The notes under the pieces are model-generated. The model made no database searches, was not told the DNA's origin, and worked only from the letters and a program-made list of their open reading frames with translations. Below are positions 18,663-51,565 of a stretch of 62,462 nucleotides of DNA, in pieces. The position numbers and the translations under genes are program-made. The DNA is from a virus. The DNA lies in IMG/VR virus record IMGVR_UViG_3300032235_001256, positions 1-62,462 of that record; one strand, written 5' to 3'. Position 1 is the stretch's first letter; each line of letters opens with the position of its first letter.

Positions 18663-19013
18663 TCAGAATTCGGTTTTTGAGACTAGGTCCAATACTGCAT
18701 CGACTTTGTCAGCGGCATCACGCTGGCCAGCAGAATCAAGCGCAGCAGCTACCTTGACCAGCTCGCCCATGAGGGATGCCTTGCGGCTCTGACGAGCATT
18801 TAGGGCAAATTGAATCTGACCGAGCAGCTCGCGCTGAGCCTTGGTCAGCTTCTTGTCGCCCTCTGCCATCTCCTGCAGCTCTTTCTTTTTCTTCTTTAGA
18901 AGAGAGGTCGGAATCTTCTTGTCTTCCGGGATATTGAGCTTCTTGTGTAGCTCGCCCTTTTCCTCTAGGCTGACCGCTCCTTGCATCCACTTGTTGTCTT
19001 TTCCTTTTGCCAT
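18663..19013 (-). CDS. Small charged hypothetical protein with C-terminal helical-hairpin motif
   Basis: 116 residues beginning MAKGKDNKW, with SD CGGAG. The N-terminal and middle parts are Lys/Glu-rich and helical (LLKKKKKELQEM). The C-terminus (about residues 84-112) reads ELVKVAAALDSAGQRDAADK, one of several copies in this phage of a motif LxxVAxxLDxxGxxxxADxxD. No known domain was recognised. It lies convergent with tail fibre 2, downstream of the 75-residue gene on the same strand, with a TAAATA-type motif 41 bases before its start. Confidence 0.7.
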   Translation of the reverse strand: MAKGKDNKWMQGAVSLEEKGELHKKLNIPEDKKIPTSLLKKKKKELQEMAEGDKKLTKAQRELLGQIQFALNARQSRKASLMGELVKVAAALDSAGQRDAADKVDAVLDLVSKTEF

Positions 19014-19046
19014 TTTTACTCCGGATAGCTTGCTAGCTGATTATCG

Positions 19047-19064
19047 TTCGAGATATTTAGTAGT
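19047..19064 (-). promoter_or_regulatory. Candidate late promoter (ACTACTAAATATCTCG)
   Basis: On the minus strand, TACTAAATATCTCG (core 19054-19059) lies 41 bases before the start at 19013. It is identical over TACTAAATAT to the motifs before both adhesin genes at the left end. Function inferred from recurrence. Confidence 0.4.
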
Positions 19065-19291
19065 CATGAGTCTGATAGTACATCTATCTCTACGTGGAAT
19101 CCGCGACTATTAAATGCTGCTATGGCGGCCTCATCTACGGCAGAGGATCGTGGATAGGCGAACTCTACCCTGCTTTTTACTATATCCAGAGCCCTTATGT
19201 ATCCTATCTTTCTGTGACCAAGGTAAACCTGAATGCCCTCATTCTGACTTGTAATATGGCCAATTATAAGTGAATCTGCTTCGATATTCAT
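19064..19291 (-). CDS. Small hypothetical protein
   Basis: 75 residues (MNIEADSLIIGHITSQNEGI), a compact mixed alpha/beta sequence without signal or membrane segment and with no family recognised. It is the first of two minus-strand genes and diverges from the hydrolase at 19366. The SD is weak (GCAAAG just before the ATG), so confidence in expression is moderate. Gap to the following minus-strand gene is 50 bases and contains a promoter-like motif. Confidence 0.55.
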   Translation of the reverse strand: MNIEADSLIIGHITSQNEGIQVYLGHRKIGYIRALDIVKSRVEFAYPRSSAVDEAAIAAFNSRGFHVEIDVLSDS

Positions 19292-19365
19292 CTTTGCCGA
19301 AAGTGTATTGAGCTTTTTAGGCAGACGTGTATTCTTTTGCGCTATTACTTATTGCCGCATTAAAC

Positions 19366-20115: not shown

Positions 20116-20124
20116 TTCCGATCT

Positions 20125-22173: not shown

Positions 22174-22704
22174 ATGCTGAAAATCGCAAAGCTTGAGCAA
22201 GAAATCAGCAACCTTGATAAGTCCGGCACGGACGAGGACACCCTTGCCGCTGCAGCCCTGGACTTCGCTGCCTACGACACAGACGATCTGCGCCGCGTCG
22301 CAAGCCTCGTAGCCGGATTTGCAGATGCCCTTGATGCCGATGGTCACCGCATAGCGGCTGATCGCCTGGATCGCGTACTGAGTAAGTTTGCATCGAATCC
22401 GGAGGCGTTCTGGGACCCACCAAAGCGCCGCAGCACAGAGATGTTGCCGCCCAATCGCTCTGCGCTTGGAGACATTGGCGCCAGCCTTAGCACCCGTCAC
22501 TCACCCGACTTGCCAGGGGTCCAGTTGGCTCGAGTATCGGATGGCGTTTATCGTGATCCGGTAACTGACAAGATTTATGATTTTAACAAGGGCTTTGTCC
22601 TAGATGACGGAACCAAGTATGTCGGAGGGTCGGTATCTGCACAAACACCGGCCGGCAGCGAAAGATTCCGGCCACTGCGACAACAAATCGAATTCGGCAA
22701 GTGA
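22174..22704 (+). CDS. Hypothetical protein with helical-hairpin motif
   Basis: 176 residues (MLKIAKLEQEISNLDKSG). Residues about 42-75 contain RRVASLVAGFADALDADGHR followed by IAADRLDRVLSKFAS, one of the clearest copies of the recurrent LxxVAxxLDxxGxxxxADxLDxVL motif. The C-terminal half is short-stranded and Pro/Gly-containing (YRDPVTDKIYDFNKGF). No catalytic motif. It is the last gene of the 20201-22704 block. The repeated motif suggests a shared binding partner with other proteins of this phage (inference). Confidence 0.7.
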   Translation: MLKIAKLEQEISNLDKSGTDEDTLAAAALDFAAYDTDDLRRVASLVAGFADALDADGHRIAADRLDRVLSKFASNPEAFWDPPKRRSTEMLPPNRSALGDIGASLSTRHSPDLPGVQLARVSDGVYRDPVTDKIYDFNKGFVLDDGTKYVGGSVSAQTPAGSERFRPLRQQIEFGK

Positions 22705-23457: not shown

Positions 23458-24832
23458 TTTCAACGAAGACAAACTTGACAATGAGATGCTGGAGTGCTTG
23501 AAAAGCATTTCTGCTAAAGCGGACAGGTGCGGAGTTGATCAACAGGATCTGGTGAAGTTCCTCTTCCTAGATAGAGTTTTAACAGATGCCCTCAGACATC
23601 TAAATGCAAAGCTATCAGAGTCAGACTACGAAGATCTCCTAGGCCACTTTGTCAGGTCAGAGGTCAGTACGCTAAAAGAAATAGCGAAAGAACTAGTGTC
23701 TGTTTTAGGCAAGAGCAAAGATCCTAATGAGACCCTGTCCTTCTCTCTTGGTAAAGAATTAAAGAAGGAAGCTTACCCTATGCGGGTAGATACAGCTGTA
23801 TATACGGGTATAAAAAGGATTTTCCCCTCTCTGGCGTCTCGGGCGGCAAGCCTTATATCCTCAGGCGTTTTAGAGGCAGACGCGATTCGTAGGGTGATTT
23901 CTGATCTGGACATGGATGACCGCTTGGCCTTCCTCTCCTGGTATGGATTAAAGTACAAGTCCGGTAGGAATTTAGGCTACCTGAGTGCCCAGGAGGACGT
24001 TTTGATTAAAAAGGTTGCATACGGCCCCGAGGGCCCAGATAGCGCATTCGTCTACCAGTTCATGAGCAAGCAGCCTGCCCAGGCAGCCCCTGTTGCGCAG
24101 CCGGCGCGCGACCACCAGGCGGATCCTATGTCTGCAGAAGAGTTTAAGAAGATGCGCGACAAGATGGTCGGCCGGACTTTTGCTATTGACAAGCTGCTAG
24201 AAAAATATCGTCACCTGCTTAAGGAAGAGCAGTTCGATGCAGTCGAGGATAGCCTCAATGTTCTTCGCAAGAGCATTCGCAAGCTCAAAGTTGCCACTCT
24301 TCAGGATGTTATCGAGAAGGTGGCCTTTACTGCGGAGCAAAATGATTGGTTCGAGGGCGCCGACGTAATTCGCAAGATAGCTGCTCCGGATGAAGCGTTC
24401 GTAAAGGTTGCTGGCTCTATTTCCCGCCCAGATGACCTAGAGGCTGTCCTAAAGTCGCTTGAGGAGATCTCAGCGTTCCTCCGCCAGCGCGCGATCATCA
24501 GGGAGCTGTCGGCCAGGGATATTGATATTTTTAATCTTGGCTTCGGCCATATGCCTGAGATCGGCGACGCCGCCGCAAAGCTAATGGAAGCCTTCAACGG
24601 CTCCGCGAACAAGATCGATGATCTCGTCGGCAAGCTCCGCGCAGAGCTCCAGCAGCAGACCGCTCCAAAGATGGCTCCTGCTGTCGTTAAAACGGTCGTC
24701 AAGCCGCAGGATCTTCCGCTCGTCAAGGCACTCGAGCCACCACCTCCGGAAGCATCTGAGGGCACTACAGAATTAGCTGCGCCAGATGCACTGCCGCTCG
24801 CACCACCACCTGTGTTGCCGCCCAAGGTTTAA
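23450..24832 (+). CDS. Hypothetical virion-region protein, Pro-rich C-terminus
   Basis: 460 residues from ATG 23450, chosen because GGGAGG lies eight bases upstream. Mostly helical; residues about 225-300 are a coiled-coil-like stretch (LLEKYRHLLKEEQFDAVEDS), with EQNDWFEGADVIRKIA resembling the recurrent hairpin motif. The last 50 residues are Pro/Ala-rich (LEPPPPEASEG, PLAPPPVLPP), likely flexible. No enzyme motif or membrane segment. It lies between the small-terminase candidate and a nucleotidyltransferase with only 2 bases before the next start. Function unknown. Confidence 0.75.
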   Translation: MFNFNEDKLDNEMLECLKSISAKADRCGVDQQDLVKFLFLDRVLTDALRHLNAKLSESDYEDLLGHFVRSEVSTLKEIAKELVSVLGKSKDPNETLSFSLGKELKKEAYPMRVDTAVYTGIKRIFPSLASRAASLISSGVLEADAIRRVISDLDMDDRLAFLSWYGLKYKSGRNLGYLSAQEDVLIKKVAYGPEGPDSAFVYQFMSKQPAQAAPVAQPARDHQADPMSAEEFKKMRDKMVGRTFAIDKLLEKYRHLLKEEQFDAVEDSLNVLRKSIRKLKVATLQDVIEKVAFTAEQNDWFEGADVIRKIAAPDEAFVKVAGSISRPDDLEAVLKSLEEISAFLRQRAIIRELSARDIDIFNLGFGHMPEIGDAAAKLMEAFNGSANKIDDLVGKLRAELQQQTAPKMAPAVVKTVVKPQDLPLVKALEPPPPEASEGTTELAAPDALPLAPPPVLPPKV

Positions 24833-30854: not shown

Positions 30855-32708
30855 ATGGTAGATAATCACAACAAATGGGGAACTGTTGATTGGCAAGCTC
30901 CTCCCGAGCCGCTCGCTCTTGCATCGCGACCAGATGGCAAGACGCCCTATCGACCACCGGCTTATTCCAATGTATCTGTACCAGAGCGTACCCGCGAAGC
31001 CGCGATTAGCGAAGCGGCGCTGCGTTCCCTCGGACCTGAGCGCCGCGCTCAGGTTGAGGAAGAGATCCTGAAAAAGAGCGCTGTTGGCGGCGATTCCCGT
31101 ATAGCACTTGGAACTGCTGTCGCAGCGGGCAAGCAGAGCCTTATCAAGACCGCCGCCGCCTCAGAGCTAGGCGGCCAGCTGCACATTGCAGGTCGTGGCA
31201 ACACGACCAATATGATGCCAAATCTGTACTCGCCGCTATTCCTGACGGCAAACCTACAGCTGCCGCGTGACCGTATTACTGCAAATGCATGGAATCGTGC
31301 GTTTTACGAAACTAATCCCCTAGTTCGCAACGCTATAAATTTACACGCAACTTATCCGATCAGCAAGATGACCATCAAGTGCAAGGATAAGAAGATCGAG
31401 AGAAAGTATCTCGAGATGGCAAAGCGTGTTGATCTATTTAACGTAGTACAACAGGTGGCGCTAGAGTACTGGATGATTGGCGAGGTCTTTCCATACGCCG
31501 AGTATGACGAGACTCGCAATATGTGGTCAAAAGTATACTGCCACAATCCTGATTATGTAGTCGTCAAGCGCACGCCAGTGCCTGGTGAATCCATCATTGC
31601 ACTCAAGCCAGACCCCAAGCTGCTGCAGATTGTCCAATCAAACGACCCTGTTCACCGCGCCTATCGCGACAAAATGGATCCGGGCCTGCTAGACGCAATT
31701 GCCCGCAATGAGTACATTCCGCTGGACAACTTTAACATCAGCCACCTGAAGAACGAGTCAACTGCGTACAATACGCACGGCTCTTCTGTCATCGTTTCGG
31801 TATGGAAGGATCTTGTTCTATGGGATCTTTTCCGCGAGAATAAGTTTATCCAGGCCGACGCGATGGTAAATCCGATGACTTTGGTAAAGGTTGGCGCATC
31901 GAATGCTGATGGTCACTATCCGCGCCAGGAAGAGCTAGCAGCCATGCGAGATGTGTTTGAGCATGCTCAGTATGACAAGGATTTCAAGGTATTTACTCAT
32001 CCGGATGTCACGATTGAGCGAGTTGGCTTCAATGGCGGCATTCTTGATATTTCTGCCGACTTGAACTTTATTCTGGATAACATCTTCATCGGTCTAATGG
32101 TACCCAAGGCAGTTATTACGCAGGAGGGCGCCTCATACGCGTCGGCCTCTGTAGCGCTAGACGTCATTCGACAGAGGTATAACAACTTCCGTACGAAGAT
32201 GACCAACTGGCTCGTAAACAAGATCTTTGCTCCGATGGCAGAGGCCAATGATTTTTATGAGACAATCGACGGCCAGAAGCACCTGGTACTACCCGATGTA
32301 GAGTGGAATCAGATGACCCTGTATGATGTCGACACATACATCGGGCACCTGCTCAATCTTATAGAGAAGACTCCTCCAACTGCTCCTGTGGGAGTTAGTC
32401 GCGGTACCGTGTATCGCAGCCTTGGCCTAGACTTCCAGGATGAACTAGCCAATCAGCGCAAGGAGGCCATCCAGATGGCGATTCTTGCAAAAGAAATGGC
32501 AGCGATTGCAAAGATGTCTCTCTCAGAACTGCGTACGCTTGATCCCGATGCACCTATCATAGAGAAGGACGAGGCACCTCTCCCGGGGGTAGGGGCAGAG
32601 GCTGCACCAGAGGGCGGAATGCCTCCCGACATGGGAGGTGGGATGCCTCCTGATATGGGCGCCGGGCCTCCGCCGGGTGGCGCAGAGCCACCGCTGCCAC
32701 CGATGTAG
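30855..32708 (+). CDS. Portal protein
   Basis: 617 residues immediately after TerL. The core (about 130-510) has features of large phage portals: AWNRAFYETNPLVRNAINLH, EYWMIGEVFPYAEYD, LVLWDLFRENKFIQADAM and the long helix region DVIRQRYNNFRTKMTNWLV. The C-terminus is Pro/Gly/Met-rich (GGMPPDMGGGMPPDMG) and probably disordered inside the capsid. The N-terminal 100 residues are also low in structure. The portal forms the dodecameric DNA channel and nucleates head assembly. Identification rests on sequence pattern plus position between TerL and the protease/scaffold region. SD GAGGTA. Confidence 0.82.
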   Translation: MVDNHNKWGTVDWQAPPEPLALASRPDGKTPYRPPAYSNVSVPERTREAAISEAALRSLGPERRAQVEEEILKKSAVGGDSRIALGTAVAAGKQSLIKTAAASELGGQLHIAGRGNTTNMMPNLYSPLFLTANLQLPRDRITANAWNRAFYETNPLVRNAINLHATYPISKMTIKCKDKKIERKYLEMAKRVDLFNVVQQVALEYWMIGEVFPYAEYDETRNMWSKVYCHNPDYVVVKRTPVPGESIIALKPDPKLLQIVQSNDPVHRAYRDKMDPGLLDAIARNEYIPLDNFNISHLKNESTAYNTHGSSVIVSVWKDLVLWDLFRENKFIQADAMVNPMTLVKVGASNADGHYPRQEELAAMRDVFEHAQYDKDFKVFTHPDVTIERVGFNGGILDISADLNFILDNIFIGLMVPKAVITQEGASYASASVALDVIRQRYNNFRTKMTNWLVNKIFAPMAEANDFYETIDGQKHLVLPDVEWNQMTLYDVDTYIGHLLNLIEKTPPTAPVGVSRGTVYRSLGLDFQDELANQRKEAIQMAILAKEMAAIAKMSLSELRTLDPDAPIIEKDEAPLPGVGAEAAPEGGMPPDMGGGMPPDMGAGPPPGGAEPPLPPM

Positions 32709-35955: not shown

Positions 35956-36104
35956 TAATCAAATACGGAACATCTGACCCCGCCACCCTTGTAGACACGA
36001 AGAATATTCCTTCGTGGCTAAGCGATGAAACGGTGCCGGTAGCCACTGGCACTGACGAGTCAGAGTCCCCTTCCGACCAGGAAGGCAGCGCGGAGGAAGA
36101 ATGA
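35952..36104 (+). CDS. Small acidic protein
   Basis: 50 residues from the ATGA overlap with the previous gene (MIIKYGTSDPATLVDTKNIP), ending in a strongly acidic tail (DESESPSDQEGSAEEE). It also overlaps the protease/scaffold start by four bases (GAATGAGC). This chain of overlaps supports a real gene. A longer in-frame reading would start inside the previous gene and is not used. Function unknown; small acidic proteins beside scaffolds can be assembly helpers. Confidence 0.6.
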   Translation: MIIKYGTSDPATLVDTKNIPSWLSDETVPVATGTDESESPSDQEGSAEEE

Positions 36105-39100
36105 GCATTATCAAGAGTGGTTTTATTGCCGGCAACTCTCTGGGAATAGTCAGCAATGCAAAGCTGAATGATGACCCGGCGGTGCACGCTCGCTTTGCTG
36201 CCGTGACCGACACTCTGCGAGCGGAGCAGAAGAAGCGGGGCGCCACCGAGCTGTCGCCATATGTTGACGATTTTCTTTATGCTAGCTGCATCATGATGCA
36301 TGCTGCCGAATCAGCTCTTATCAACCAGGAGACCGGAGAGGTCATTAAGACCGCTGATGGCAAGCCTGTCGCGGGTTGGTTTGAACGCTATGACGCATCA
36401 GACGGTCGTGAGACTGCTCGCTGGGTTAGTCCCGATGGCGTTCGCCCAACTAAGAATAACAATGGAGACATCTTTCCAGAGTCAGAGCTGCTAAAAGCTT
36501 ATAAAAACTGGATTGGTAAGCCGCTGTGCAAGGATCATGTTTCAAGCTCAGTCGATGGCATCCGTGGCGTAATAGTTGATACTTTTTATGACCCAAAGTT
36601 CAAGCGTGTTCATGCGCTCTTTGCGCTTGACAAGAAGAACTATCCAGACCTCGCCCGCAAGGTAGAGGCCGGATACGCCACAAACGTCTCAATGGGAACC
36701 GCCGTCGGTCGCTCGATCTGTAGCGAGTGCCAGAATGTGGCCACCGTAGCTTCTGAATTTTGCGGTCACGTAAAGGCGCGAACCCATTACGGCGAAATAA
36801 ATCTTGATCTGAATCCAATCGAGCTCAGCATTGTGGTTACAGGAGCAGATCCTCGTGCCAAGATTCGTAAAATTGTTGCAAGTCTCGATGAATATCGCGC
36901 GCAGGCAGATGCGCTGCGCAAGATTAAGGGCGTGCCGCTCGAGGTGCTTGCTGCCGTTGATAGCGAGATTGGCAGCCTACAGGAAGATGTCACAAGAGGC
37001 ATCCCGCCCGGGGACGTATCGCTTGATCGCTTGTTTGAACTGATTGGCCTTGTAGAGGCTAACGATGAAAAAACCGGCGCTCTAGGAATGGCGGCGTCGA
37101 AACTTTTCGAGTACATGAACGAGGTTGGTCTGAGCGCTATCCATTTGGCTCTCCTTACCTCAGGTGACGATAAGAGCGAAGAACTCTTCAAGGCCTTGTC
37201 AAGGATAAAGAATCTTTCTGACTCCGAGGATATGGTCAAGGAGGCATCCAAGGCAATCGGCAGGCTCACCGAACTTGCGCTTGGTGTATCTGACAGTGTC
37301 ACTAGTACGACCCCTTCTTCCGCGACCGGATCGTCTCCGCTGGGCGATGACGCCCGGTCCGGAACAGGGACCAGAGGGCCCATGACTGGCGATCCGACCG
37401 GCACAGCCAGCTCAGGCACAGGGATTGATCCGTTTGGGCGGAACAGTACGTCTGGTGGACACGGATCTCCTCCAGAGGGCGATTTGTTTGGGCTAGCATC
37501 CGTATATAGGGACGTTCCGTTGAAAAAAGGTGCAGCCGAGTACAAAAAAGATTCTGATGCCATTTCTGAAAGAATAACATCTATTAAAAACAGTTTGGAT
37601 AGTTTGAAATCATGTCTCCCGACCCAGAAGGCGGGAGTGGGAACAGGAGATATTATGACGTTTGATGAACTACGGAAGCGTGCTAATCTGCGTAAGAAAG
37701 CTTACATGCAGGGCACAGAAGAGCCAAAGGCCTATGCCCCCATGGGCGATCCAGATCTACGCGAGGGCGATCACCACCTCCACGGCGAGGAGCTCGACAC
37801 TTCCGTAGCCAATCCAGACCAGAAGGTTAAAGAGATGCTTCACCGCGCATCTTTGGATGAGCGCCGCGCCGCCCGCGCAGAGAAGCTCAAGGCCATCGCC
37901 GAGACAGCAGTTGTTGTCAAAGATCCGTCTGGGAAGCCAGCCGGCGTTATCGCCGACAAGAAGTTCGTTCCAGCGGCTAAGGCTGACGACGGCCATGCGG
38001 AAGACGACGCACAGGCTTATGATCAGGACGCGGATGATCTCGTCAAGGCTGAAGCCGCACTCCTGCGCCGCCTAGAGATCCTCAAGGAAGCTGCCAAGAA
38101 GAAGGGCAAGAAGGCCGAGAAGAAGGACTCGGAAGATGAGAAGAAGGAGCCCAAGGCAACAAAGGGCATGAAAGGCATGAAGGAAGAGCATGATGCCAAG
38201 GCCGCAAAAGGCGCGAAGCCCATGAAGAAGAAGGCATATCCCCAGGGCACCGAAGAGCCAAAGGCTTACGCCCCCATGGGCGACCCGGATCTCCGCGACG
38301 GCGATCACCACCTCGGCGGCAAGGAGCTTGATACCAAGGTTGGCAATCCAGACCAGAAGGTCAAGGAGCTCATTCAGCGCGCAGGCCTCAAGGCCCGCCT
38401 GACGAAGTCTGCCAATGTTGAGCGCTCACGCTGGTCGGTGCTTGCAGGCGACAAGGAAGTCTTCACTGTCACTGCTGGCGACGCATACAATGTTCACCTC
38501 AATAAGCAGAGCGACGTTGCCGGCAAGACCTGGGGAGAGCTATTTGTATCGCCAGAGTACGGCAAGCAGCTCATGGCTCAGATTCGCGCAGGCAATATTT
38601 CCAAGCTCGCGGCCGAGCTCGATGCAGCCAAGGAGTCAGCTGCCGATGCTCCGATGCCAGCTCCGCCGGCTGATGCTGGCATGGCTGCGCTCCCAGCTCC
38701 AGCTCCAATGGTTGAGCCAGCTCCAGAGCCTGCTCCTGGCAACGAAGCCGATGACATGAAGGATCGCGTCATGGGCGCTCTTGAGAAGCTCGAAGGCTGC
38801 GTTGCTGACCTCAAGGCCGCAGTCCTTGGCGATGATGCCGGCGTTAGCGATGTGGACGTAGAGGCGCCAATGGCCGCCACTGCCTCTCTGCAGCGCGGTA
38901 TGTTCGAGGCTCACGCTTCGCTAAACTCACTCGCCAGCGAACTTCGCTTTCTCGCCCGCGATGCCGACCTGGCTGATCCAAGCGTTCGCCTCGCCGCTCG
39001 CGCTGCGATTCGCGACAGCCACCTGGCCGTAATCGAGGCAAATGAGCGCATTGCTGCGTATCAAGATGCCTGCGCCGAGGACGACGCTATGGCTCTTGAT

Positions 39101-40021
39101 GACGAGGAGCTTGATCAGGTAGCCGAAGAGGTTGAGAGCGCCATCGATGAGCACATCGAAGGCGACCCATCTCACGATGACCTGGAACAGGCCCTAAACG
39201 ACCTTCGCGAAGAGCTCAAGGCGCTCGAGGACAAGGTCGAGGACGTCGCAGAGCTGGTAGAGGAGAAGGACGAGAAGGACGAGGACGAGGAGAAGGAGGC
39301 TGATGCCATGGATGATATGTCCAAGCGCGCCGCCATGCGTCAGCAGCTCGTTGCTCGCGCCGCGAAGATGGACATGGTCAGCTCCGACCCGATGCTCAAC
39401 GTTCACGGCAAGGGCGAGGGCAAGCTCGACTTCGGCATGAAGACGACCGGCGATGCCGACTCAGACGTCCAGAGCGTATTTGAGGCTCAGGAGATGGCGA
39501 TGAAGACCATGGAAGGTGTCAAGAAGGCTGCAGCCGGAATTGCTACCGCCGTACGCCAGGGCACGATCAAGGAGTCACAGCTCGACGCCCTCGTAGCCGT
39601 GGCTGCCGTTGACGCCGAAGCGGTTAAGTACTACCGCGAGTACTTCGGCAAGACCGACAGCGAGTTCGCCAAGGGTCTTGTTTCTGAGTTCAAGAAGTCA
39701 GCTAGCTCGAACGAGGACATCGGCTTCCGCTACAAGCGCGCTTACGCGGTCGCTATCGACGCCCAGGCCCGCGGCCTCATCAGCCAGGGTCGCGCCGCTC
39801 TCGACGAGTGCGCGGAGACCCTTGCTACCGGCAGCGATACTAACTTTGACAGCTTCAAGCGCATGGTTGGCAACGTCAAGCCACAGGCCCGCACCGCCGG
39901 CATCGTCCCACAGATGGGCGTAGTCGACGGCGCCGAGTCCAACACCCGCACCGCCTCGGATAAGGGCAGTGTAGATGTCCGCGACTGGCGCAGCCTCGGC
40001 AAAGCTCTGTTCGACATCTGA
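36101..40021 (+). CDS. Prohead protease-scaffold fusion protein
   Basis: 1306 residues. The N-terminal about 270 residues look like a serine-type prohead protease: His146 in CKDHVSSSVDGIRG and Ser197 in TNVSMGTAVG, about 50 residues apart as in HK97/T4-type assembly proteases, then a Cys/His cluster (CSECQNVATVASEFCGH) seen in related phage proteins. Residues 330-515 are a helical then Gly/Ser/Thr-rich linker. From residue 519 (MTFDELRKRANL) the protein is scaffold-like: charged, helical, with a 53-residue internal duplication, a DEDEEKEAD acidic stretch and Ala-rich helices. Protease and scaffold fused in one gene, located before the capsid genes, fits a head-maturation module. Catalytic assignment is by motif only. 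Confidence 0.72.
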   Translation: MSIIKSGFIAGNSLGIVSNAKLNDDPAVHARFAAVTDTLRAEQKKRGATELSPYVDDFLYASCIMMHAAESALINQETGEVIKTADGKPVAGWFERYDASDGRETARWVSPDGVRPTKNNNGDIFPESELLKAYKNWIGKPLCKDHVSSSVDGIRGVIVDTFYDPKFKRVHALFALDKKNYPDLARKVEAGYATNVSMGTAVGRSICSECQNVATVASEFCGHVKARTHYGEINLDLNPIELSIVVTGADPRAKIRKIVASLDEYRAQADALRKIKGVPLEVLAAVDSEIGSLQEDVTRGIPPGDVSLDRLFELIGLVEANDEKTGALGMAASKLFEYMNEVGLSAIHLALLTSGDDKSEELFKALSRIKNLSDSEDMVKEASKAIGRLTELALGVSDSVTSTTPSSATGSSPLGDDARSGTGTRGPMTGDPTGTASSGTGIDPFGRNSTSGGHGSPPEGDLFGLASVYRDVPLKKGAAEYKKDSDAISERITSIKNSLDSLKSCLPTQKAGVGTGDIMTFDELRKRANLRKKAYMQGTEEPKAYAPMGDPDLREGDHHLHGEELDTSVANPDQKVKEMLHRASLDERRAARAEKLKAIAETAVVVKDPSGKPAGVIADKKFVPAAKADDGHAEDDAQAYDQDADDLVKAEAALLRRLEILKEAAKKKGKKAEKKDSEDEKKEPKATKGMKGMKEEHDAKAAKGAKPMKKKAYPQGTEEPKAYAPMGDPDLRDGDHHLGGKELDTKVGNPDQKVKELIQRAGLKARLTKSANVERSRWSVLAGDKEVFTVTAGDAYNVHLNKQSDVAGKTWGELFVSPEYGKQLMAQIRAGNISKLAAELDAAKESAADAPMPAPPADAGMAALPAPAPMVEPAPEPAPGNEADDMKDRVMGALEKLEGCVADLKAAVLGDDAGVSDVDVEAPMAATASLQRGMFEAHASLNSLASELRFLARDADLADPSVRLAARAAIRDSHLAVIEANERIAAYQDACAEDDAMALDDEELDQVAEEVESAIDEHIEGDPSHDDLEQALNDLREELKALEDKVEDVAELVEEKDEKDEDEEKEADAMDDMSKRAAMRQQLVARAAKMDMVSSDPMLNVHGKGEGKLDFGMKTTGDADSDVQSVFEAQEMAMKTMEGVKKAAAGIATAVRQGTIKESQLDALVAVAAVDAEAVKYYREYFGKTDSEFAKGLVSEFKKSASSNEDIGFRYKRAYAVAIDAQARGLISQGRAALDECAETLATGSDTNFDSFKRMVGNVKPQARTAGIVPQMGVVDGAESNTRTASDKGSVDVRDWRSLGKALFDI
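37655..40021 (+). CDS. Nested in-frame scaffold protein (internal start)
   Basis: ATG 37655 is in frame with the fusion gene and is preceded by a near-ideal SD, AGGAG, with spacing of about five bases. It lies exactly at the border between the flexible Gly/Ser-rich linker and the scaffold-like part and would give a 788-residue protein starting MTFDELRKRANLRKKAYMQG. Lambda C/Nu3 and similar pairs make protease-scaffold and free scaffold in this way. Internal initiation is inferred from the SD and the domain boundary. Confidence 0.6.
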   Translation: MTFDELRKRANLRKKAYMQGTEEPKAYAPMGDPDLREGDHHLHGEELDTSVANPDQKVKEMLHRASLDERRAARAEKLKAIAETAVVVKDPSGKPAGVIADKKFVPAAKADDGHAEDDAQAYDQDADDLVKAEAALLRRLEILKEAAKKKGKKAEKKDSEDEKKEPKATKGMKGMKEEHDAKAAKGAKPMKKKAYPQGTEEPKAYAPMGDPDLRDGDHHLGGKELDTKVGNPDQKVKELIQRAGLKARLTKSANVERSRWSVLAGDKEVFTVTAGDAYNVHLNKQSDVAGKTWGELFVSPEYGKQLMAQIRAGNISKLAAELDAAKESAADAPMPAPPADAGMAALPAPAPMVEPAPEPAPGNEADDMKDRVMGALEKLEGCVADLKAAVLGDDAGVSDVDVEAPMAATASLQRGMFEAHASLNSLASELRFLARDADLADPSVRLAARAAIRDSHLAVIEANERIAAYQDACAEDDAMALDDEELDQVAEEVESAIDEHIEGDPSHDDLEQALNDLREELKALEDKVEDVAELVEEKDEKDEDEEKEADAMDDMSKRAAMRQQLVARAAKMDMVSSDPMLNVHGKGEGKLDFGMKTTGDADSDVQSVFEAQEMAMKTMEGVKKAAAGIATAVRQGTIKESQLDALVAVAAVDAEAVKYYREYFGKTDSEFAKGLVSEFKKSASSNEDIGFRYKRAYAVAIDAQARGLISQGRAALDECAETLATGSDTNFDSFKRMVGNVKPQARTAGIVPQMGVVDGAESNTRTASDKGSVDVRDWRSLGKALFDI
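37694..37852 (+). repeat. Scaffold internal duplication, copy A
   Basis: Encodes KKAYMQGTEEPKAYAPMGDP, then DLREGDHHLHGEELDT and NPDQKVKEMLHRA. Matches copy B at 38228-38386 at about 75 percent identity over 53 residues. DNA differences are spread over codon third positions, so the duplication is old and kept by selection. Confidence 0.85.
38228..38386 (+). repeat. Scaffold internal duplication, copy B
   Basis: Encodes KKAYPQGTEEPKAYAPMGDP, then DLRDGDHHLGGKELDT and NPDQKVKELIQRA. A Lys-rich stretch (KKKGKKAEKKDSEDEKKE) separates it from copy A. Two copies of a conserved peptide could be two capsid- or portal-binding sites. Confidence 0.85.
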
Positions 40022-40325: not shown

Positions 40326-40521
40326 TATTGCAGACGAAATTGCAGCCGGCATGCAGCAGGCGATCAAAGAGAACTCACCAGCACCAGAAGCCGGCTATTT
40401 CTCTGGCATTGCGCAGCAGCTCGCCGGCACTGCGAGCGAGCTTGATCAGGCCGGCAGCCCGCTCGCTGGGAATGTTGATGCGCTGCTCAACAAAATGGTA
40501 AGCGTGCTAGGAGAAGACTGA
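40312..40521 (+). CDS. Small protein with C-terminal helical-hairpin motif
   Basis: 69 residues from ATG 40312 with SD GAGGAAGG. Mostly helical; the C-terminal half, GIAQQLAGTASELDQAGSPL then AGNVDALLNKMVSVL, is a full copy of the recurrent LA..LD.AG....VD.L motif, so the protein is little more than this motif plus a short helix. Overlaps the next gene by one base (TGATG). Useful as the minimal example of the motif. Confidence 0.72.
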   Translation: MATIDIADEIAAGMQQAIKENSPAPEAGYFSGIAQQLAGTASELDQAGSPLAGNVDALLNKMVSVLGED

Positions 40522-41235: not shown

Positions 41236-41838
41236 ATGAATAAGAAATTGTCCCTGTTTGCAAGCATGTTTGAGGCCGATACGGGTATGGATGTTCGTGA
41301 CGAGTTTGTATCCGCCTGGGCAGATGCACTCACGCAAAAGAATAACCAGCGCAACCGCAAATTTGTTGCAACGGATGTGGATAACTGGCTCAAGACCATG
41401 CACGAGGAAATTGCCGAGTGCGATGAGTCGGCGACCGTGCGCGTGTGGCTCGATGAGCTAAATGATCTTTTTTGTGTTTCGGTTGTTGATGCGTCGGGCT
41501 GCTCCGAGTTCTGCGTTGCCTCGCCCCGCAACCCCAAGACGGAGACAGAGGAGCTCATTCTAGCCGTAATCAATGGTGGTCCGGAGGCGCAAGAGGCTTT
41601 CCGTGGCGCAGTGTTGAAGCTAAAGGGCGACAGCCCAGCGGAGACCGTTTCAGACAAGAGAGAAGAGCGACTAGCTGACTCTGTTGTCGTGGACGATGAC
41701 GATATGAGCGATGACGAGCTGGATGAGCTAGCGGACAAGCTGGATAAAACCGCCTCGCTGCTAGCTAATAATCAATCTGCAGCGTATATGGTCGAATTAG
41801 CAGCCTCTCGTCTTCGAGAGATCAAAGCAGGTGAGTGA
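41236..41838 (+). CDS. Hypothetical protein with helical-hairpin-like C-terminus
   Basis: 200 residues from ATG 41236 (MNKKLSLFASMFEADTGMDV) with SD GAGGTTG. The N-terminal half is alpha/beta (VRVWLDELNDLFCVSVVDAS). A strongly acidic segment (VVDDDDMSDDELDELADKLD) leads into LDKTASLLANNQSAAYMVEL, a variant of the recurrent motif. Overlaps the next gene by one base. Function unknown. Confidence 0.72.
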   Translation: MNKKLSLFASMFEADTGMDVRDEFVSAWADALTQKNNQRNRKFVATDVDNWLKTMHEEIAECDESATVRVWLDELNDLFCVSVVDASGCSEFCVASPRNPKTETEELILAVINGGPEAQEAFRGAVLKLKGDSPAETVSDKREERLADSVVVDDDDMSDDELDELADKLDKTASLLANNQSAAYMVELAASRLREIKAGE

Positions 41839-42227
41839 TGTCTAAGTTTGTAGATGTAGACGGTATACTGGCAGAAGTGCAAAAGAAGATGGCTGGGCAG
41901 ACCACTATGCCGAAGAGCGTTTTCCGACAGGAAGAGGCCCGCGCAGATGTGGATGTTCAGTCAGAGCTAAACAAGCGAGCTGAGGCATACTTTAGCGACA
42001 TGCTTGATGATGTTCACAAGAAGTCAGTAAAGCTCGATGGTATTGACGCAACGGTGATGACCGCCCAGGATCGCCAGGCCGTAGCCATGAAAATGCTTGA
42101 TGCAGGCAAGCGCAAGAAGCTTGCTGCGGTTGCCGATCAGCTGCGAGTGGTGGCCGACCAGGCCGACGCTTCAGGACTTTTTAAGCAGGCTGCCTCGCTC
42201 CGCGAAGCTGCTGCAAAGCTTTCTTGA
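41838..42227 (+). CDS. Hypothetical helical protein with C-terminal helical-hairpin motif
   Basis: 129 residues (MSKFVDVDGILAEVQKKMAG). Helical throughout; the C-terminus, KLAAVADQLRVVADQADASG then LFKQAASLREAAAKLS, is another motif copy (AD..DASG...QA..L). The TGATG overlap couples it to the previous gene. Together with 40312 and 41236 it forms a run of three consecutive genes ending in related helical tails. Confidence 0.75.
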   Translation: MSKFVDVDGILAEVQKKMAGQTTMPKSVFRQEEARADVDVQSELNKRAEAYFSDMLDDVHKKSVKLDGIDATVMTAQDRQAVAMKMLDAGKRKKLAAVADQLRVVADQADASGLFKQAASLREAAAKLS

Positions 42228-45333: not shown

Positions 45334-47043
45334 ATGACGATTGCCGATGAAATTGCAAAAGAGTTTGCCAAAAATCTGGCAGATAAACGAGCCGCAGCGC
45401 GCCAGCAGCTCGTTGCCGCTGCCGCCGACACAGAGAAGGCAATCCGCGAAAAGCGCCCGCGCAAAAGCGATGAAAAATCAATCATAGAGGAAGCTCACCC
45501 GGGCGAGGTTTTCGTTGCAGAGTCCGACGGCCTAGGGGGCATGGTTGGAAATCCAGAGCAGGTTCATGAGCAGATTCTTAATGCCCTGAACCGCCGTCCG
45601 TCCGCCTTCCCCTATCAGGGTCTTGTTGCAAATGCAATGCTGGACTTCGAGAAGACTGCCGAGACGCTCGAGTCACATGACCTACATGACGAAGCCGATG
45701 CTGTGCGAAAAATCGCGCAGGATTTGCTTGCGGTGTTGCAAAGGCGAGCGCAACTAGGCTCCACGACTCCGGGAGGAGTTGCAGATCCCGAGATTCTTGA
45801 TCCAGATCCCGATCAGACGCAGTCATCGAAGATACACAGGGCACCTGATATACAGGAAGCCGAATTAGTATCGGGGGAGGGTCGGACGACAAGTCAAACG
45901 CCCACCGAAACCAGGCCTCGCGACAATAGCGGCGTCGTATCCAAAAGTATCGAACAAACATCAAAAAATGCAAAAAAAGCGGGCGGCGCCCTTAGCAAGA
46001 TAAAGGGATTTGGAGGAAAAATTCTGGGCCCAATAGGACTGGTGATATCTGCGTGGGACATCATAGACTCCGCCAGGAGTGGTGACTGGGCCTCCATCTG
46101 GACCACTGCCGGTGGCGCAGCAATTGGTGCGGCTGCGGCTGCGGCGGGCGTAACTGCGGCACCGGCACTAATTGCCGCCGGCGTAGGCACTGCCGTGGCA
46201 AATGGGATTAGCGCAGCCTTGACTGCCACTGCTCAGGATGGGATAGACGTAGATCTAGCCGAGCTTGCAGCGGACATTGAATCAGAAGTTGCCGATGATT
46301 CTTACGACCCTGCCGCTTACACAGATCCGGTTAAAAAGGAGAAGGCAGAAGCTGCTCGCAAGGCTCTAGAGGCCATGCGCGAGCGGATAAACAGCATATT
46401 GCTAGCCAGGAAGACATTGGAGCGCGAGGCCGGAAAGGGAGAGCAGATGGATCCCGGCACTGTAGGAGTTGCTATCGCCAGTATCGCCGAGAACAACAGG
46501 GCACTGGGAGAGGCATTTGCGCAATTCGAGAAGGCGGGCAGCGAACTTGACCTAACTTTCCTTCGTGACACACTTGGCTTTGGATTTCCGAAGATCAAGA
46601 ATCGCATTTCAGATGTTAATGAATCAGTTTCAGAGTTTGAAAATGCGATGGAGGAGCTCTACACCAAGATCAAACCTCAGGTCGATACTATTCGCAGCCA
46701 GCTAGAGGACCAGGAAGGGCGCGCATCACAGTTGATGAAGGATATTTCATCTGGAGCTGCCACTGGGTACGGGGTAAGGACCTCGCTCGGTCTTCCTACA
46801 AAGCTAAAGAGTGACGTAGACAATCCTGATCACGTAAAGGAAGTCCAGGGCTTTCTGGGAGTGCGAGAGACCGGTGAGTGGGATGAGCCGACGATGGACA
46901 AGATTCGCAAGATACGCAATCGCTGGATCGGCTTTCACATCGATATGGCCAAACACGTCACGGAGGACATCTTGAAGGCTTCCACCAGGGAAGAGCTGGA
47001 TGATCTTGAACAGCTCTGGCAAAACAGACTCGCAGGCAACTGA
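45334..47043 (+). CDS. Putative pore-forming/ejection protein with hydrophobic core and C-terminal PG-binding-like part
   Basis: 569 residues with SD GAAGAGG. Residues about 105-140 carry a hairpin-motif copy (KTAETLESHDLHDEADAVRK). About 225-305 is a colicin-like Gly/Ala hydrophobic stretch in two halves (ILGPIGLVISAWDIIDSA; AGGAAIGAAAAAAGVTAAPA) that could span a membrane twice. About 330-480 is coiled coil. Near 490-530 VKEVQGFLGVRETGEWDEPT resembles a peptidoglycan-binding repeat. The layout fits a protein injected with DNA to make an envelope channel; this is inference. Confidence 0.62.
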   Translation: MTIADEIAKEFAKNLADKRAAARQQLVAAAADTEKAIREKRPRKSDEKSIIEEAHPGEVFVAESDGLGGMVGNPEQVHEQILNALNRRPSAFPYQGLVANAMLDFEKTAETLESHDLHDEADAVRKIAQDLLAVLQRRAQLGSTTPGGVADPEILDPDPDQTQSSKIHRAPDIQEAELVSGEGRTTSQTPTETRPRDNSGVVSKSIEQTSKNAKKAGGALSKIKGFGGKILGPIGLVISAWDIIDSARSGDWASIWTTAGGAAIGAAAAAAGVTAAPALIAAGVGTAVANGISAALTATAQDGIDVDLAELAADIESEVADDSYDPAAYTDPVKKEKAEAARKALEAMRERINSILLARKTLEREAGKGEQMDPGTVGVAIASIAENNRALGEAFAQFEKAGSELDLTFLRDTLGFGFPKIKNRISDVNESVSEFENAMEELYTKIKPQVDTIRSQLEDQEGRASQLMKDISSGAATGYGVRTSLGLPTKLKSDVDNPDHVKEVQGFLGVRETGEWDEPTMDKIRKIRNRWIGFHIDMAKHVTEDILKASTREELDDLEQLWQNRLAGN

Positions 47044-48027: not shown

Positions 48028-49032
48028 ATGTCAAATCTTTTTGATAACTCAGGCGAGCTCGGTGGTCTTACCACCCGCGACGCGCTGAAGAGCCTCGTTC
48101 GCATTGCCAAGGTCCTCGAGGAGGGCATGCCATCCAACGCCGTTGCCGCCGGCCGTCCTTCGACCACCGAGTCGCAGCGCGACGAGCTCGTTCGCCAGGC
48201 CATCCTCGACCAGGGCGGCAAGGTCGCTCTTGCTCAGGCCATGGCGCTCCCAATCCGCCGCAACCTTGATTACTCGGGCGTTGCTCGCCGCGGCCTCGTT
48301 GTTGACGAGCTCGCCACCGGCGTCCTTCCCCTCTATGAGCGCGACATCGACGTTGCCGCTTTCGTAATCTCGGCGAACGGCGCCGTTCCAGAGAGCCCCG
48401 TCCGTGGCGACCGCGTATTCGTCCCAGAGTTCGACATCGCCTGCCACCCACTCGTCCGCATCCGCGAGGCCCGTCAGCGCCGCTTCAATGTCATCGAGCG
48501 TACGGTCCAGAAGGCCAAGCAGGAGATCGCTGCCACCGAGGACGCGAACTTCTTCGCCGCCCTCGACTTCGCCAGCGACGCCGCCCTCGGCGGTGAGAAC
48601 ACCGCTCAGGTTCTCGGCGCCCGCATCTCGCGCGCTGATATGGTCGAGATCAAGTCAGAAGTTGATCAGTGGGACCTGCTCACCAGCAAGTTCTTCATGA
48701 ACATCCGCGACTTCCAGGACCTCCTCCTCTGGACGTCACAGGGTGGTACCTCGGCTGCTGAAGTCGACCCCGTCACGCACCGCGAGATCCTCCAGACCGG
48801 CCTCTACGCCAAGCTCTTCACCGCCGACATCATCGTCAGCAAGCTTGTTCCGTTCGGCAGCGTCTTCGGTTGCGCTGAGCCCGACATGGTCGGCGTCATG
48901 CCAATCCGCCAGAACGTCGAAGTCGTGCCAAACGACAAGATGGATCGCCTCAGCCTCGGCTGGACGGTATTCGAGACCATCGGTATCGGCATCGTCAACG
49001 CCCGCGGCGTCGCCGTCGGCCGCAAGTCCTGA
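48028..49032 (+). CDS. Major capsid protein (HK97-fold type)
   Basis: 334 residues with SD CGGAG. Recognisable features: N-terminal helical arm (DALKSLVRIAKVLEEG), then LPLYERDIDVAAFVISANG, VRGDRVFVPEFDIACHP, the spine-helix region (RFNVIERTVQKAKQEIAATE), DLLTSKFFMNIRDFQDLLLW, and a conserved end (VVPNDKMDRLSLGWTVFETI). Codon use is the most biased of the window, nearly all C- or G-ending for Arg, Ala, Ile and Val. It is a monocistronic unit between two terminators. It assembles into the shell on the scaffold encoded at 36101-40021. No obvious protease-removed delta domain precedes it, consistent with a separate scaffold. Confidence 0.85.
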   Translation: MSNLFDNSGELGGLTTRDALKSLVRIAKVLEEGMPSNAVAAGRPSTTESQRDELVRQAILDQGGKVALAQAMALPIRRNLDYSGVARRGLVVDELATGVLPLYERDIDVAAFVISANGAVPESPVRGDRVFVPEFDIACHPLVRIREARQRRFNVIERTVQKAKQEIAATEDANFFAALDFASDAALGGENTAQVLGARISRADMVEIKSEVDQWDLLTSKFFMNIRDFQDLLLWTSQGGTSAAEVDPVTHREILQTGLYAKLFTADIIVSKLVPFGSVFGCAEPDMVGVMPIRQNVEVVPNDKMDRLSLGWTVFETIGIGIVNARGVAVGRKS

Positions 49033-49050
49033 GCTTAGCTCTGGTCTGAA

Positions 49051-49195: not shown

Positions 49196-49552
49196 GTGAG
49201 CTTATTCGACTTATTATTTCGCAAGAGCTGTGCAGTGGAGTCTCACCCTGCCGATGGGTACCTGGCACAGCCGCCAGGGCACGACACCATTGTGCGCCCA
49301 GGCACATATCGTTTTAATAATCGCCAGGTAGATATTCTCGGTTTTCTGCCCAATGGCAAAATGAGCGCTACTCTATTCCTATGTCATGCGGGCTCGGGAA
49401 GCTGCTCAGAGTGGGGCACCTACGAGTTTTCTAGGGTATCGTACGACAAATCCCAAGAGATATGGGAAGCTATTGTTGGCAAGTCAGGCATAGTTATTCA
49501 TGTGACAAAACACCACGGCGAAGTAGCGCTGAAAATAGAGGTTGACAGATGA
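49196..49552 (+). CDS. Hypothetical protein (GTG start)
   Basis: 118 residues from GTG 49196, with SD AGGTGAG. Small beta-rich protein (TYRFNNRQVDILGFLPNGKM, GTYEFSRVSYDKSQEIW). It overlaps thyA by four bases (ATGA) and so belongs to the nucleotide-metabolism cassette by coupling. No family recognised. Confidence 0.7.
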   Translation: MSLFDLLFRKSCAVESHPADGYLAQPPGHDTIVRPGTYRFNNRQVDILGFLPNGKMSATLFLCHAGSGSCSEWGTYEFSRVSYDKSQEIWEAIVGKSGIVIHVTKHHGEVALKIEVDR

Positions 49553-50406
49553 CTGAAGCTTCCTATCTAAATATAATGCGTCAGATTCTTGATGAAGGGG
49601 TTGACGTAGAAAATGATCGCACAGGAGTTGGAACCCGAGGCATCTTTGGCGCTCAGATGGCATTTGACATGGATGACGGGTTTCCCCTACTGACCACTCG
49701 TCGCATTGCGTTTCGCATTGCATTCGAAGAGATGATGTGGTTTATCAGGGGGCAGACAGATTCCAAGATCCTTGAGCAGAAAAAAATCAACATTTGGAGG
49801 GGTAACACTACACGTGAATTCCTGGATGCAAAAGGACTGGCTCATCTCCCGGAAGGTGACGCAGGAAAGAACTACAGCTGGCAGCTACGCAACTTCAACG
49901 GCAGCCATGTGGGCTCCGGCTACGATCAGTTGGCCGCAATTGTATCTGGAATAAAGACAGATCCATCCAGTCGCCGCCATTTTGTTAGCTACTGGAATCC
50001 GCAGCAGGTGCTGACAGAGGCAGCTCTGCCGCCCTGCCATGTAAGCTGGGCAGTGCAGATTGCCGGAGGCAGGCTAAATCTATCCTTCCAGATGCGGTCT
50101 AATGATTTCTATCTAGGAAATCCGACAAATATCGCAGGATACGGGTTCCTGCTGCACGCCCTCGCCAATTTGGCCGGCTATCGTCCCGGCCGACTTGTGT
50201 TCCAGGGATCTGATGTGCATCTGTATAAGAATCAGTTAGATAACGCAATGATACAAGTCACTCGCGAGCCGCTGCCGTTGCCAGGATTTCGCATAAACAA
50301 ACATCTGTCTACTTTAGATGACCTGCTTGCTCTGCAGTATTCTGATGTAGAGGTAGTGGGGTATGCGCACCACCCAGATTTGCCAAAGGTTGAGATGGCG
50401 ATATGA
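49549..50406 (+). CDS. thyA: Thymidylate synthase
   Basis: 285 residues with all main ThyA landmarks: NDRTGVGTRGIFG, FPLLTTRR, FEEMMWFIRGQTDSKIL, W..N..REFLD, the catalytic Cys163 in LPPCHVSWAVQ, QMRSNDFYLGNPTNIAGYGF (Asn194, the dUMP-recognising position, is kept, so it should use dUMP rather than dCMP) and SDVHLYKNQLDNA. It converts dUMP and methylene-THF to dTMP and DHF for phage DNA synthesis. Overlaps folA by four bases, giving a matched pair in which DHFR regenerates THF. Confidence 0.95.
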   Translation: MTEASYLNIMRQILDEGVDVENDRTGVGTRGIFGAQMAFDMDDGFPLLTTRRIAFRIAFEEMMWFIRGQTDSKILEQKKINIWRGNTTREFLDAKGLAHLPEGDAGKNYSWQLRNFNGSHVGSGYDQLAAIVSGIKTDPSSRRHFVSYWNPQQVLTEAALPPCHVSWAVQIAGGRLNLSFQMRSNDFYLGNPTNIAGYGFLLHALANLAGYRPGRLVFQGSDVHLYKNQLDNAMIQVTREPLPLPGFRINKHLSTLDDLLALQYSDVEVVGYAHHPDLPKVEMAI

Positions 50407-50855
50407 GTAAATTGATCGGGATAGCTGCAGTATCGGAGAATGGCGTAATTGGTCGTGGCAACTCCCTGCCGTGGCACCTGCCAGAGGACTTGGCCTGGTT
50501 CAAATTCGTAACCCTGGGCCATACGCTTGTGATGGGTCGCGCCACCTATAATTCCATAGGCCGCCCACTTCCTGGCAGAAAAACGTATATTCTCACGAGA
50601 TCGCCATCCATCCCCTCGGAGATCAGCAGCCTGGCCGAAGCGCACTCGGACTCAGGCTTCATCTTCTTGTGCGGCGGCTCAGAGGTATATGCACAGTTTT
50701 TATTTGACTGTGACGAGTTGCTGATTACTCATGTAAAGCAAGAGGTTGACGGCGACAAGTATTTTCCTTATTTTCAACACATGTTCCATGCGACAGAAAC
50801 ACTCCGGTCAAACGATGAGTATGATATTATCAGATATGCGAGGAATCCACGATGA
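50403..50855 (+). CDS. folA: Dihydrofolate reductase
   Basis: 150 residues, clearly DHFR: IAAVSENGVIGRGNSLPWHL, the active-site acid Asp29 in PEDLAWFK, VMGRATYNSIGRPLPGRK, TRS, LCGGSEVYAQF and DGDKYFPYF. It reduces dihydrofolate produced by ThyA. Slightly shorter than the about 160 residues of E. coli DHFR. ATGA overlaps on both sides place it in the 49196-51229 cassette. Confidence 0.95.
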   Translation: MSKLIGIAAVSENGVIGRGNSLPWHLPEDLAWFKFVTLGHTLVMGRATYNSIGRPLPGRKTYILTRSPSIPSEISSLAEAHSDSGFIFLCGGSEVYAQFLFDCDELLITHVKQEVDGDKYFPYFQHMFHATETLRSNDEYDIIRYARNPR

Positions 50856-51229
50856 AGCATTCTAGTGCCGCCTGGCGTTGGGGTTCTGCGGAGCATCGGG
50901 CAGAAGTCATAGCGTCCGCACTCCATTGTTTTTTTAATAAGAGCGCCTACGAGCCGGATTTGCGCGGCCTAACCAGCCGAGTGGCCGTGATCGCCGACAG
51001 CGACTTTGATGACGAGTGCATTATAATTGGAAATCTTGCAGGCTTCATTTCTTTTGAGATAAATGCAGCAAGCCCTTATGTCGGTGGTGGTGAATTCATG
51101 GATTGGGCCATGAGCAGTGCTGCCAGACTCGAAGGTCTCGCCTCTCTCGATCTTTCTCTAAAGATAACGGGACGCAACTGCGTCCCGCTAGCGATCTGCC
51201 TTATGCGCAAGAAGGGATCAGGCCTCTAG
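50852..51229 (+). CDS. Hypothetical protein of the thyA-folA cassette
   Basis: 125 residues (MKHSSAAWRWGSAEHRAEVI), overlapping folA by four bases. Alpha/beta with an acidic middle (VIADSDFDDECIIIGNLAGF) and a basic C-terminus (CLMRKKGSGL). No motif recognised. Its last 12 bases overlap the convergent minus-strand gene. Confidence 0.68.
   Translation: MKHSSAAWRWGSAEHRAEVIASALHCFFNKSAYEPDLRGLTSRVAVIADSDFDDECIIIGNLAGFISFEINAASPYVGGGEFMDWAMSSAARLEGLASLDLSLKITGRNCVPLAICLMRKKGSGL
51168..51187 (-). terminator. Hairpin within the 3' end of the plus-strand gene, possible minus-strand terminator
   Basis: CGGGACGCA-ac-TGCGTCCCG, nine perfect pairs. On the minus strand it is followed by TTATCTTT, 30 bases past the stop of the gene 51218-51565, so it could end that transcript while lying inside the opposite coding region. 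Weak T run. Confidence 0.4.
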
Positions 51230-51565
51230 TCCGCCCTCGAATGACTCAACAACGCCGGCTCCGTGTTCACGCTTAAGCTCTTCGATTTTGCTAGCGGCCG
51301 CACTGCGAGCCGCTTTTACGTTTTTGCCAATAAACCTGATCGCCGGACCCATCGGGTTCGGATTCTCCAGTTCGTGGACGGTTATTTCGCAAGCGACCAT
51401 GCCCTTCTCCCGCTTAAATGTGACATGAACCGACTTTTTTACTTCCTGTTCGGCGAGGATTAGCAGGTTAGCGGCCGCATCCATATGAGCTGCAGCGCGG
51501 AACATGCCGGCTTGGTCTAGCTGGTTGGCGAGCGCGTAGATGTTCTTTATAATAGTTTTGTTCAT
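51218..51565 (-). CDS. Hypothetical protein with N-terminal helical-hairpin motif
   Basis: 115 residues from the ATG ending at 51565, preferred over starts 15 codons upstream because GGAG is well placed. Residues 1-35 (MNKTIIKNIYALANQLDQAG, then MFRAAAHMDAAANLL) are a clear copy of the recurrent motif, here at the N-terminus. The rest is a small alpha/beta region (ACEITVHELENPNPMGPAIR) with a basic helix. It is convergent with the thyA cassette. Function unknown. Confidence 0.7.
   Translation of the reverse strand: MNKTIIKNIYALANQLDQAGMFRAAAHMDAAANLLILAEQEVKKSVHVTFKREKGMVACEITVHELENPNPMGPAIRFIGKNVKAARSAAASKIEELKREHGAGVVESFEGGLEA

What the first reader, a model, noticed from the sequence alone, without database searches (positions are those of the whole stretch)
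18663..51565. Recurrent helical-hairpin motif (LxxVAxxLDxxGxxxxADxxDxxL) in about eight proteins
Copies are seen in genes at 18663 (C-term), 22174 (middle), 33803 (about 178-205), 40312 (C-term), 41236 (C-term), 41838 (C-term), 45334 (about 105-140) and 51218 (N-term), with a weaker copy in 23450. The pattern is two amphipathic helices around an LD-x-x-G turn, with Ala-Asp/Asp-x-x-Leu in the second helix. Host proteins differ in size and fold, and the motif position varies. A 69-residue protein (40312) is nearly only this motif. It may be a docking element for one common partner such as scaffold or capsid, or for each other.
Basis: partly seen in the sequence, partly recalled or inferred. Interest (0 to 1): 0.65.

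Follow-up and report, generated by a model that had tools for sequence, protein, structure and literature searches.

The report
Shared hairpin tag on megaphage proteins
A short two-helix tag, mostly at the very start of the protein, is shared by otherwise unrelated proteins (up to about 20 per genome) in one lineage of giant bacterial viruses, and it probably acts as an address label that docks them to a common partner, most likely to load them into the virus head.

Summary
The motif is real. An HMM seeded from related copies finds 101 copies in 13 related phage records and none in reversed sequences. A strict DNA pattern for it gives 100 stretches in IMG/VR, 0 for its codon-reversed control, and 4 in 257 Gb of bacterial and archaeal genomes. 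Seven of the nine copies listed in the window hold up; 23450 is weak and 41236 is not supported.

The window is a fragment of a huge phage distantly related to Bacillus phage G. Elsewhere in the lineage the motif is a modular tag: 61 of 87 copies sit at the extreme N-terminus, 9 at the C-terminus. The 89 tagged proteins fall into 78 unrelated cargo clusters, often in adjacent genes. AlphaFold predicts a two-helix hairpin (pLDDT 97). Synonymous sites are saturated while the protein sequence is kept, so selection maintains it. An MCP tree fits an ancestral tag with one loss.

Cargo includes zinc and cell-wall peptidases, glycine-zipper proteins and an ArdC-like domain; core replication enzymes sampled are untagged. 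Several older copies lie in the head gene block. Best reading: a docking tag that loads cargo into the prohead, working like the T4/P1 capsid targeting sequence but unrelated to it. Docking is likely; the partner and virion location are inferred. No earlier description was found.

The parts
18681..18782 (-). hairpin motif, C-terminal, in gene 18663-19013 (116 aa)
   Evidence: HMM E=4e-13 with A2 (profile includes this copy); independent profile 1.6e-7; same place in G001 and G002
22297..22398 (+). hairpin motif, N-terminal third of gene 22174-22704 (176 aa)
   Evidence: independent profile 3e-6; orthologs in G025 and G024 carry the motif C-terminal to the shared core instead
24296..24391 (+). 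weak copy in gene 23450-24832
   Evidence: found only by profiles that include it; not found by outside profiles
34325..34429 (+). hairpin motif after the HExxH domain of gene 33803-34696 (297 aa, zinc-peptidase-like)
   Evidence: aligned with canonical copies in G022, G024, G025, G041 orthologs; motif D, G, A, L, D invariant
40405..40500 (+). hairpin motif making up the C-terminal half of the 69-aa protein 40312-40521, directly after the protease/scaffold gene
   Evidence: hairpins also lie in the genes directly after the protease of G024 and G025
41725..41832 (+). claimed C-terminal copy in gene 41236-41838; not supported
   Evidence: best independent-profile score E=1.8
42129..42224 (+). 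hairpin motif at the C-terminus of gene 41838-42227 (about 130 aa)
   Evidence: leave-one-out E=2.6e-5; kept in G002 and G004
45631..45726 (+). diverged hairpin motif in gene 45334-47043 (569 aa)
   Evidence: orthologs in G005 and G006, defined by a shared AHP..GGLVEN peptide, carry canonical motifs
51458..51562 (-). hairpin motif, N-terminal, in gene 51218-51610
   Evidence: independent profile E=0.005; AlphaFold hairpin pLDDT 97
30855..32708 (+). portal protein (lineage marker)
   Evidence: phrog_16240 E=2.6e-48
36101..40021 (+). head maturation protease fused to a long acidic scaffold-like region (candidate docking partner)
   Evidence: phrog_18299 E=4e-12
48028..49032 (+). major capsid protein (lineage marker)
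   Evidence: phrog_2522 E=7e-62

Best explanation
The motif is a modular docking tag: a compact two-helix hairpin of about 31 residues, usually N-terminal and joined by an acidic, variable linker to unrelated cargo. I infer that it binds one lineage-specific partner in the prohead core (protease/scaffold or a core protein that itself carries such hairpins), so that tagged cargo is gathered into the head before DNA packaging and later delivered with the DNA. Shown here: the recurrence, modularity, selection, predicted hairpin fold, restriction to one phage lineage, and location of older copies in the head block. Inferred: the partner, virion location and ejection.
For: Forward 101 versus 0 reversed hits. 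DNA pattern 100 versus 0 for the reversed control in IMG/VR, and 4 in 257 Gb of cellular genomes, the only HMM-confirmed cellular record being a phage-like stretch. 78 unrelated cargo clusters among 89 tagged proteins, with synonymous sites saturated while pN is about 0.4. Position: 61 N-terminal, 9 C-terminal, 17 internal. Orthologs carry the tag at different ends or lack it. Tagged genes cluster. Fourteen of 17 large contigs taken by motif alone carry the window's MCP or TerL family, and the MCP tree needs only two changes. Tagged cargo includes zinc peptidases, an M15-like peptidase, PG-binding/LysM, glycine-zipper proteins and ArdC-N, against RecA, topoisomerase, primase and sigma factor among untagged controls. 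Head-block genes after the protease carry hairpins in G024 and G025 too. Predicted hairpin, pLDDT 97. Precedent: T4 CTS and the P1 DarB N-terminal 30 residues suffice to load foreign proteins (PMC9026906, PMC9024508).
Against: No virion proteome of a tagged phage was available. No conserved cleavage site follows the tag; only Ala at +7 is enriched (38%), unlike the T4 CTS. Most tagged proteins have no known function, so the cargo argument rests on a minority, and the HExxH and glycine-zipper enrichments are not significant (p=0.08 and 0.3). One tagged protein is a CCA-type nucleotidyltransferase, which need not be packaged. MCP N-terminus versus motif is only a weak profile match. The sister clade with MCP about 58% identical to the window lives almost without the tag.
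Confidence: 0.45

Rival explanations
1. Docking tag for a hub in the infected cell (takeover complex, membrane or replication-associated assembly), not for the virion.
For: Tagged genes form accessory clusters away from the head block in G022, G023, G024 and G025; most cargo is of unknown function.
Against: Sampled replication and transcription enzymes are untagged; conserved tagged proteins lie in the head block; tagged cell-wall and zinc peptidases fit virion delivery.
Confidence: 0.22
2. Homotypic tag: hairpins stack on each other like TPR hairpins, so that tagged proteins co-assemble, with core proteins bearing hairpins as the nucleus.
For: Hairpin geometry superposes on TPR hairpins at 0.4-0.7 Angstrom, though no match is significant; some proteins carry two or three copies.
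Against: Most proteins have a single copy; no partner data; the invariant acidic residues would repel unless they pair with conserved basic ones.
Confidence: 0.17
3. Chaperone or AAA+ handle: the tag recruits phage-encoded GroEL or the MoxR/VWA pair.
For: Phage GroEL is found in many tag-rich genomes and in none of the searched tag-poor relatives.
Against: Essentially one loss event, so other genes covary too; tag-rich contigs G023, G028, G030, G033, G034, G035 and G040 show no GroEL (some are fragments); GroEL clients are not known to need tags (general knowledge).
Confidence: 0.05
4. Neutral inheritance: paralogous N-termini spread by duplication, with no specific function beyond a stable helical cap.
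For: Tags in G023 reach 90% identity and lie in adjacent genes.
Against: Synonymous sites saturated with the protein sequence kept in seven of eight genomes; unrelated cargo; invariant A, D, G, A, D.
Confidence: 0.05

Closest known systems
T4 capsid targeting sequence (CTS) of internal proteins IPI-III (PMC9026906)
   Same: Short N-terminal signal shared by dissimilar, variable cargo; cargo genes are not well conserved between relatives; cargo can act against host defence.
   Different: The T4 CTS is about 10 residues and is cleaved by gp21; here a folded 31-residue hairpin, often also C-terminal or internal, with no conserved cleavage site seen.
Phage P1 DarB N-terminal packaging signal (PMC9024508)
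   Same: Similar length (30 residues sufficient) and position; loads a large antirestriction protein into the head.
   Different: Reported for DarB, not as a tag repeated on many proteins; no sequence comparison was made here.
Tetratricopeptide (TPR) hairpin
   Same: Helix-turn-helix geometry and spacing of small and large residues (A8, L11, G15, A20 positions) agree.
   Different: Single copy as a rule, no Pfam TPR match, distinct invariant Asp residues; profile alignment with a TPR consensus is poor.
phiKZ/SPN3US propeptides of ejected head proteins
   Same: Giant phages with ejected head proteins processed by a head protease.
   Different: Cleavage after S/A-X-E (PMC9026906); no shared hairpin reported in the passages read; a different capsid lineage.

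Membership tests
T4-type capsid targeting sequence | Same short signal on unrelated cargo proteins | tested here: met
   89 tagged proteins in 78 cargo clusters
T4-type capsid targeting sequence | N-terminal location | tested here: inconclusive
   61 of 87 N-terminal, but 9 C-terminal and 17 internal
T4-type capsid targeting sequence | Removal by the head protease at a defined site just after the signal | tested here: inconclusive
   No conserved site after position +8; Ala at +7 in 38%
T4-type capsid targeting sequence | Necessary and sufficient for packaging into the head | not testable with these tools
   Needs virion proteomics and fusion assays
TPR repeat | Helical hairpin of the TPR geometry | tested here: inconclusive
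   AlphaFold hairpin pLDDT 97; rmsd 0.4-0.7 to TPR proteins, but Foldseek E>3
TPR repeat | Recognised by TPR profile models | tested here: not met
   No Pfam family at E<=10 for consensus or a real copy; TPR consensus aligns over only 15 residues
TPR repeat | Tandem array of about three or more repeats | tested here: not met
   Nearly all proteins have one copy
Known phage or protein family (Pfam, PHROGs, PDB) | Significant profile match of the motif | tested here: not met
   No Pfam match and no significant PHROGs match; no PDB sequence at E<=1

The most novel reading that the evidence does not exclude
A lineage of giant phages uses one folded hairpin tag as an address for a modular payload: up to about 20 unrelated proteins per genome are sorted by it into the virion and delivered to the host, and new effectors become payload simply by acquiring the tag.
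Probability: 0.35. Interest if true: 0.85.

Novelty: new variant of a known kind. Interest (0 to 1): 0.68.

Why it matters
If right, the tag gives a sequence-only way to list the delivered proteins of uncultivated giant phages, most of whose genes have no known function, and it offers a folded tag, usable at either end of a protein, for directing cargo into very large capsids. Even without the virion step, a selected docking module on 5-22 unrelated proteins per genome is an undescribed organising principle in this lineage and makes its partner directly searchable.

Tried and rejected
TPR membership was rejected (no profile match, single copy). Targeting to a replication compartment was thought unlikely because sampled replication enzymes are untagged. 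Motif in phage G, LR745208, Rctr197k and Myrna: none; one marginal hit in Tunturi_5 (E=0.05) was discounted. tblastn of consensus and real tagged proteins in 50,697 phage records gave nothing, though the low-complexity filter may matter. A link between the motif and the MCP N-terminus was only suggestive (prob 7%, first helix only). Degenerate hairpins in head genes of the tag-poor clade are not significant genome-wide although hand-picked pairwise profile comparisons are. The search for related loci could not use the motif alignment. AlphaFold of 33803 was poor (pLDDT 61) and was not fold-searched. Three Clostridiaceae/Acidobacteria pattern hits were dismissed because their genomes give no HMM hits.

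Full report
What the window is. The window is a 62,462-base virus record. It carries a terminase with an intein, a portal, a head maturation protease fused to a long scaffold-like region, and a major capsid protein (MCP) of family phrog_2522. Its MCP is about 44% identical to that of Bacillus phage G. Its nearest long relative, G002, is a 371,675-bp contig with 99% MCP identity.

Is the motif real? Seven window segments plus the weak 23450 copy seed an HMM that recovers orthologous copies in relatives and beats reversed and shuffled proteins. A profile built only from 171 copies outside the window's close relatives finds 18663, 22174 and 51218 significantly. The copies in 33803, 45334, 40312 and 41838 are backed by orthologs. 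The 23450 copy is weak and the 41236 copy is unsupported.

How far does it reach? In 13 related phage records an iterated HMM gives 101 hits at E<0.01 and none in reversed proteins. The strict DNA pattern L..hA..LD..G...EAD.hD matches 100 stretches in IMG/VR and 4 in 257 Gb of cellular genomes; its codon-reversed control matches none in IMG/VR. Some genomes carry many copies: about 21-22 in G023 (223 kb), 16-17 in G022 and 14-17 in G002, by the two searches.

Which phages? Seventeen large contigs were found by the motif alone. Fourteen of them carry the window's MCP or TerL family, and two of the other three are fragments with other shared genes. On an MCP tree the tag-poor genomes form one well-supported clade nested among tag-rich ones, so two changes suffice: an ancestral tag and one loss. 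The tag-rich set was partly chosen by the motif, but the 12 tag-poor and 5 of the tag-rich records (window lineage, G005, G006) were recruited by MCP alone.

What it looks like. In 194 non-redundant copies the invariant or near-invariant positions are L-20, A-16, L-13, D-12, G-9, A-4, D-3 and D0. Conservation fades after position +7 into an acidic linker-like stretch. AlphaFold on 76 copies gives two helices, residues 2-15 and 19-34, at mean pLDDT 97. The hairpin resembles TPR hairpins geometrically but no match is significant. No Pfam, PHROGs or PDB family matches it significantly.

It is a module. The motif is N-terminal in 61, C-terminal in 9 and internal in 17 of 87 proteins. The 89 tagged proteins form 78 unrelated cargo clusters. 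Within one orthologous family (window 22174) the tag lies before the shared core in the window, after it in G024, and after it in three copies in G025; it is missing in G022. G004 lacks it in its 33803 homolog. Within genomes the tags are saturated at synonymous sites while pN is about 0.4; only G006, with three copies, is not saturated. Tagged genes are adjacent more often than shuffling predicts.

Cargo. Only 11 Pfam families are hit by 84 tagged proteins, against 48 by 84 untagged controls from six of the same genomes. The controls include RecA, topoisomerase, primase, 5'-3' exonuclease and sigma factor. Tagged cargo includes an HExxH zinc-peptidase family kept in five genomes, an M15-like peptidase (read from sequence), PG-binding and LysM domains, glycine-zipper proteins, an ArdC N-terminal domain and one CCA-type nucleotidyltransferase. 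This is the kind of list expected of delivered or wall-penetrating proteins, but most cargo is unknown and the HExxH enrichment is not significant (p=0.08).

Head block. Window copies 33803, 40312, 41838 and 45334 lie between portal and MCP. In G024 and G025 the gene directly after the protease holds two diverged hairpins, which align with the motif profile at pairwise E about 1e-4 (hand-picked, so not corrected). I therefore infer that the prohead core already contained such hairpins and that accessory proteins use the sharper consensus copy to dock there.

Mechanism and precedent. T4 internal proteins are drawn into the core by a 10-residue propeptide that suffices for foreign cargo (PMC9026906), and the first 30 residues of P1 DarB suffice likewise (PMC9024508). 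The present tag would work like these. It is not filed as a member, because cleavage is unproven and the tag is folded, longer and not always N-terminal.

Rivals. A non-virion hub, homotypic stacking, a chaperonin handle and neutral spread are weighed in their own sections. Phage GroEL covaries partly with the tag, but this is confounded by shared descent.

Literature. Full-text searches for such a motif in jumbo or huge phages returned no description; subscription journals are not covered.

Noticed in passing
window 2857, 4829, 7345, 19327 (and weaker 60126): A second shared N-terminal peptide, M-x(0-4)-F-x-LFK-x-A, on otherwise different proteins (HExxH peptidase, NUDIX hydrolase, others); also in G001 and G002, including a 2,698-aa ORF, but not in the more distant genomes searched.
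   Followed up: partly
G042:C5 (JAFDWS010000002.1, 1,363,254 bp, Armatimonadetes MAG SZAS-3), sampled at 30-500 kb: A low-GC stretch (0.52-0.55, samples to 500 kb; 0.60-0.62 from 560 kb on) with MCP, portal, protease and about 8 tags: a roughly 500-kb integrated or mis-joined giant phage that hints at an Armatimonadetes host.
   Followed up: partly
window 45334-47043; G006 9512; G005 336; G022 35800; G024 152315; G025 110233: Conserved peptide EDLI..AHPK.V.V.DA.G.GGLVEN..EQ in large head-block proteins upstream of MCP, at either end of the protein; perhaps another docking peptide.
   Followed up: partly
G024 65133-66770 and 126035-127672, and relatives: Two divergent GroEL chaperonin genes per genome in many tag-rich phages, none found in the tag-poor relatives searched.
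   Followed up: partly
window 27916-30846: TerL carries a LAGLIDADG-type intein; the G002 TerL ORF is about 1 kb shorter, which suggests it lacks the intein, while those of G001 and G004 are similar in length to the window's.
   Followed up: no
window 36101-40021: The repeated peptide YPQGTEEPKAYAPMGDPDLR(E/D)GDHHL occurs twice (first copy begins YMQGTEEP) in the scaffold-like part of the protease fusion.
   Followed up: no
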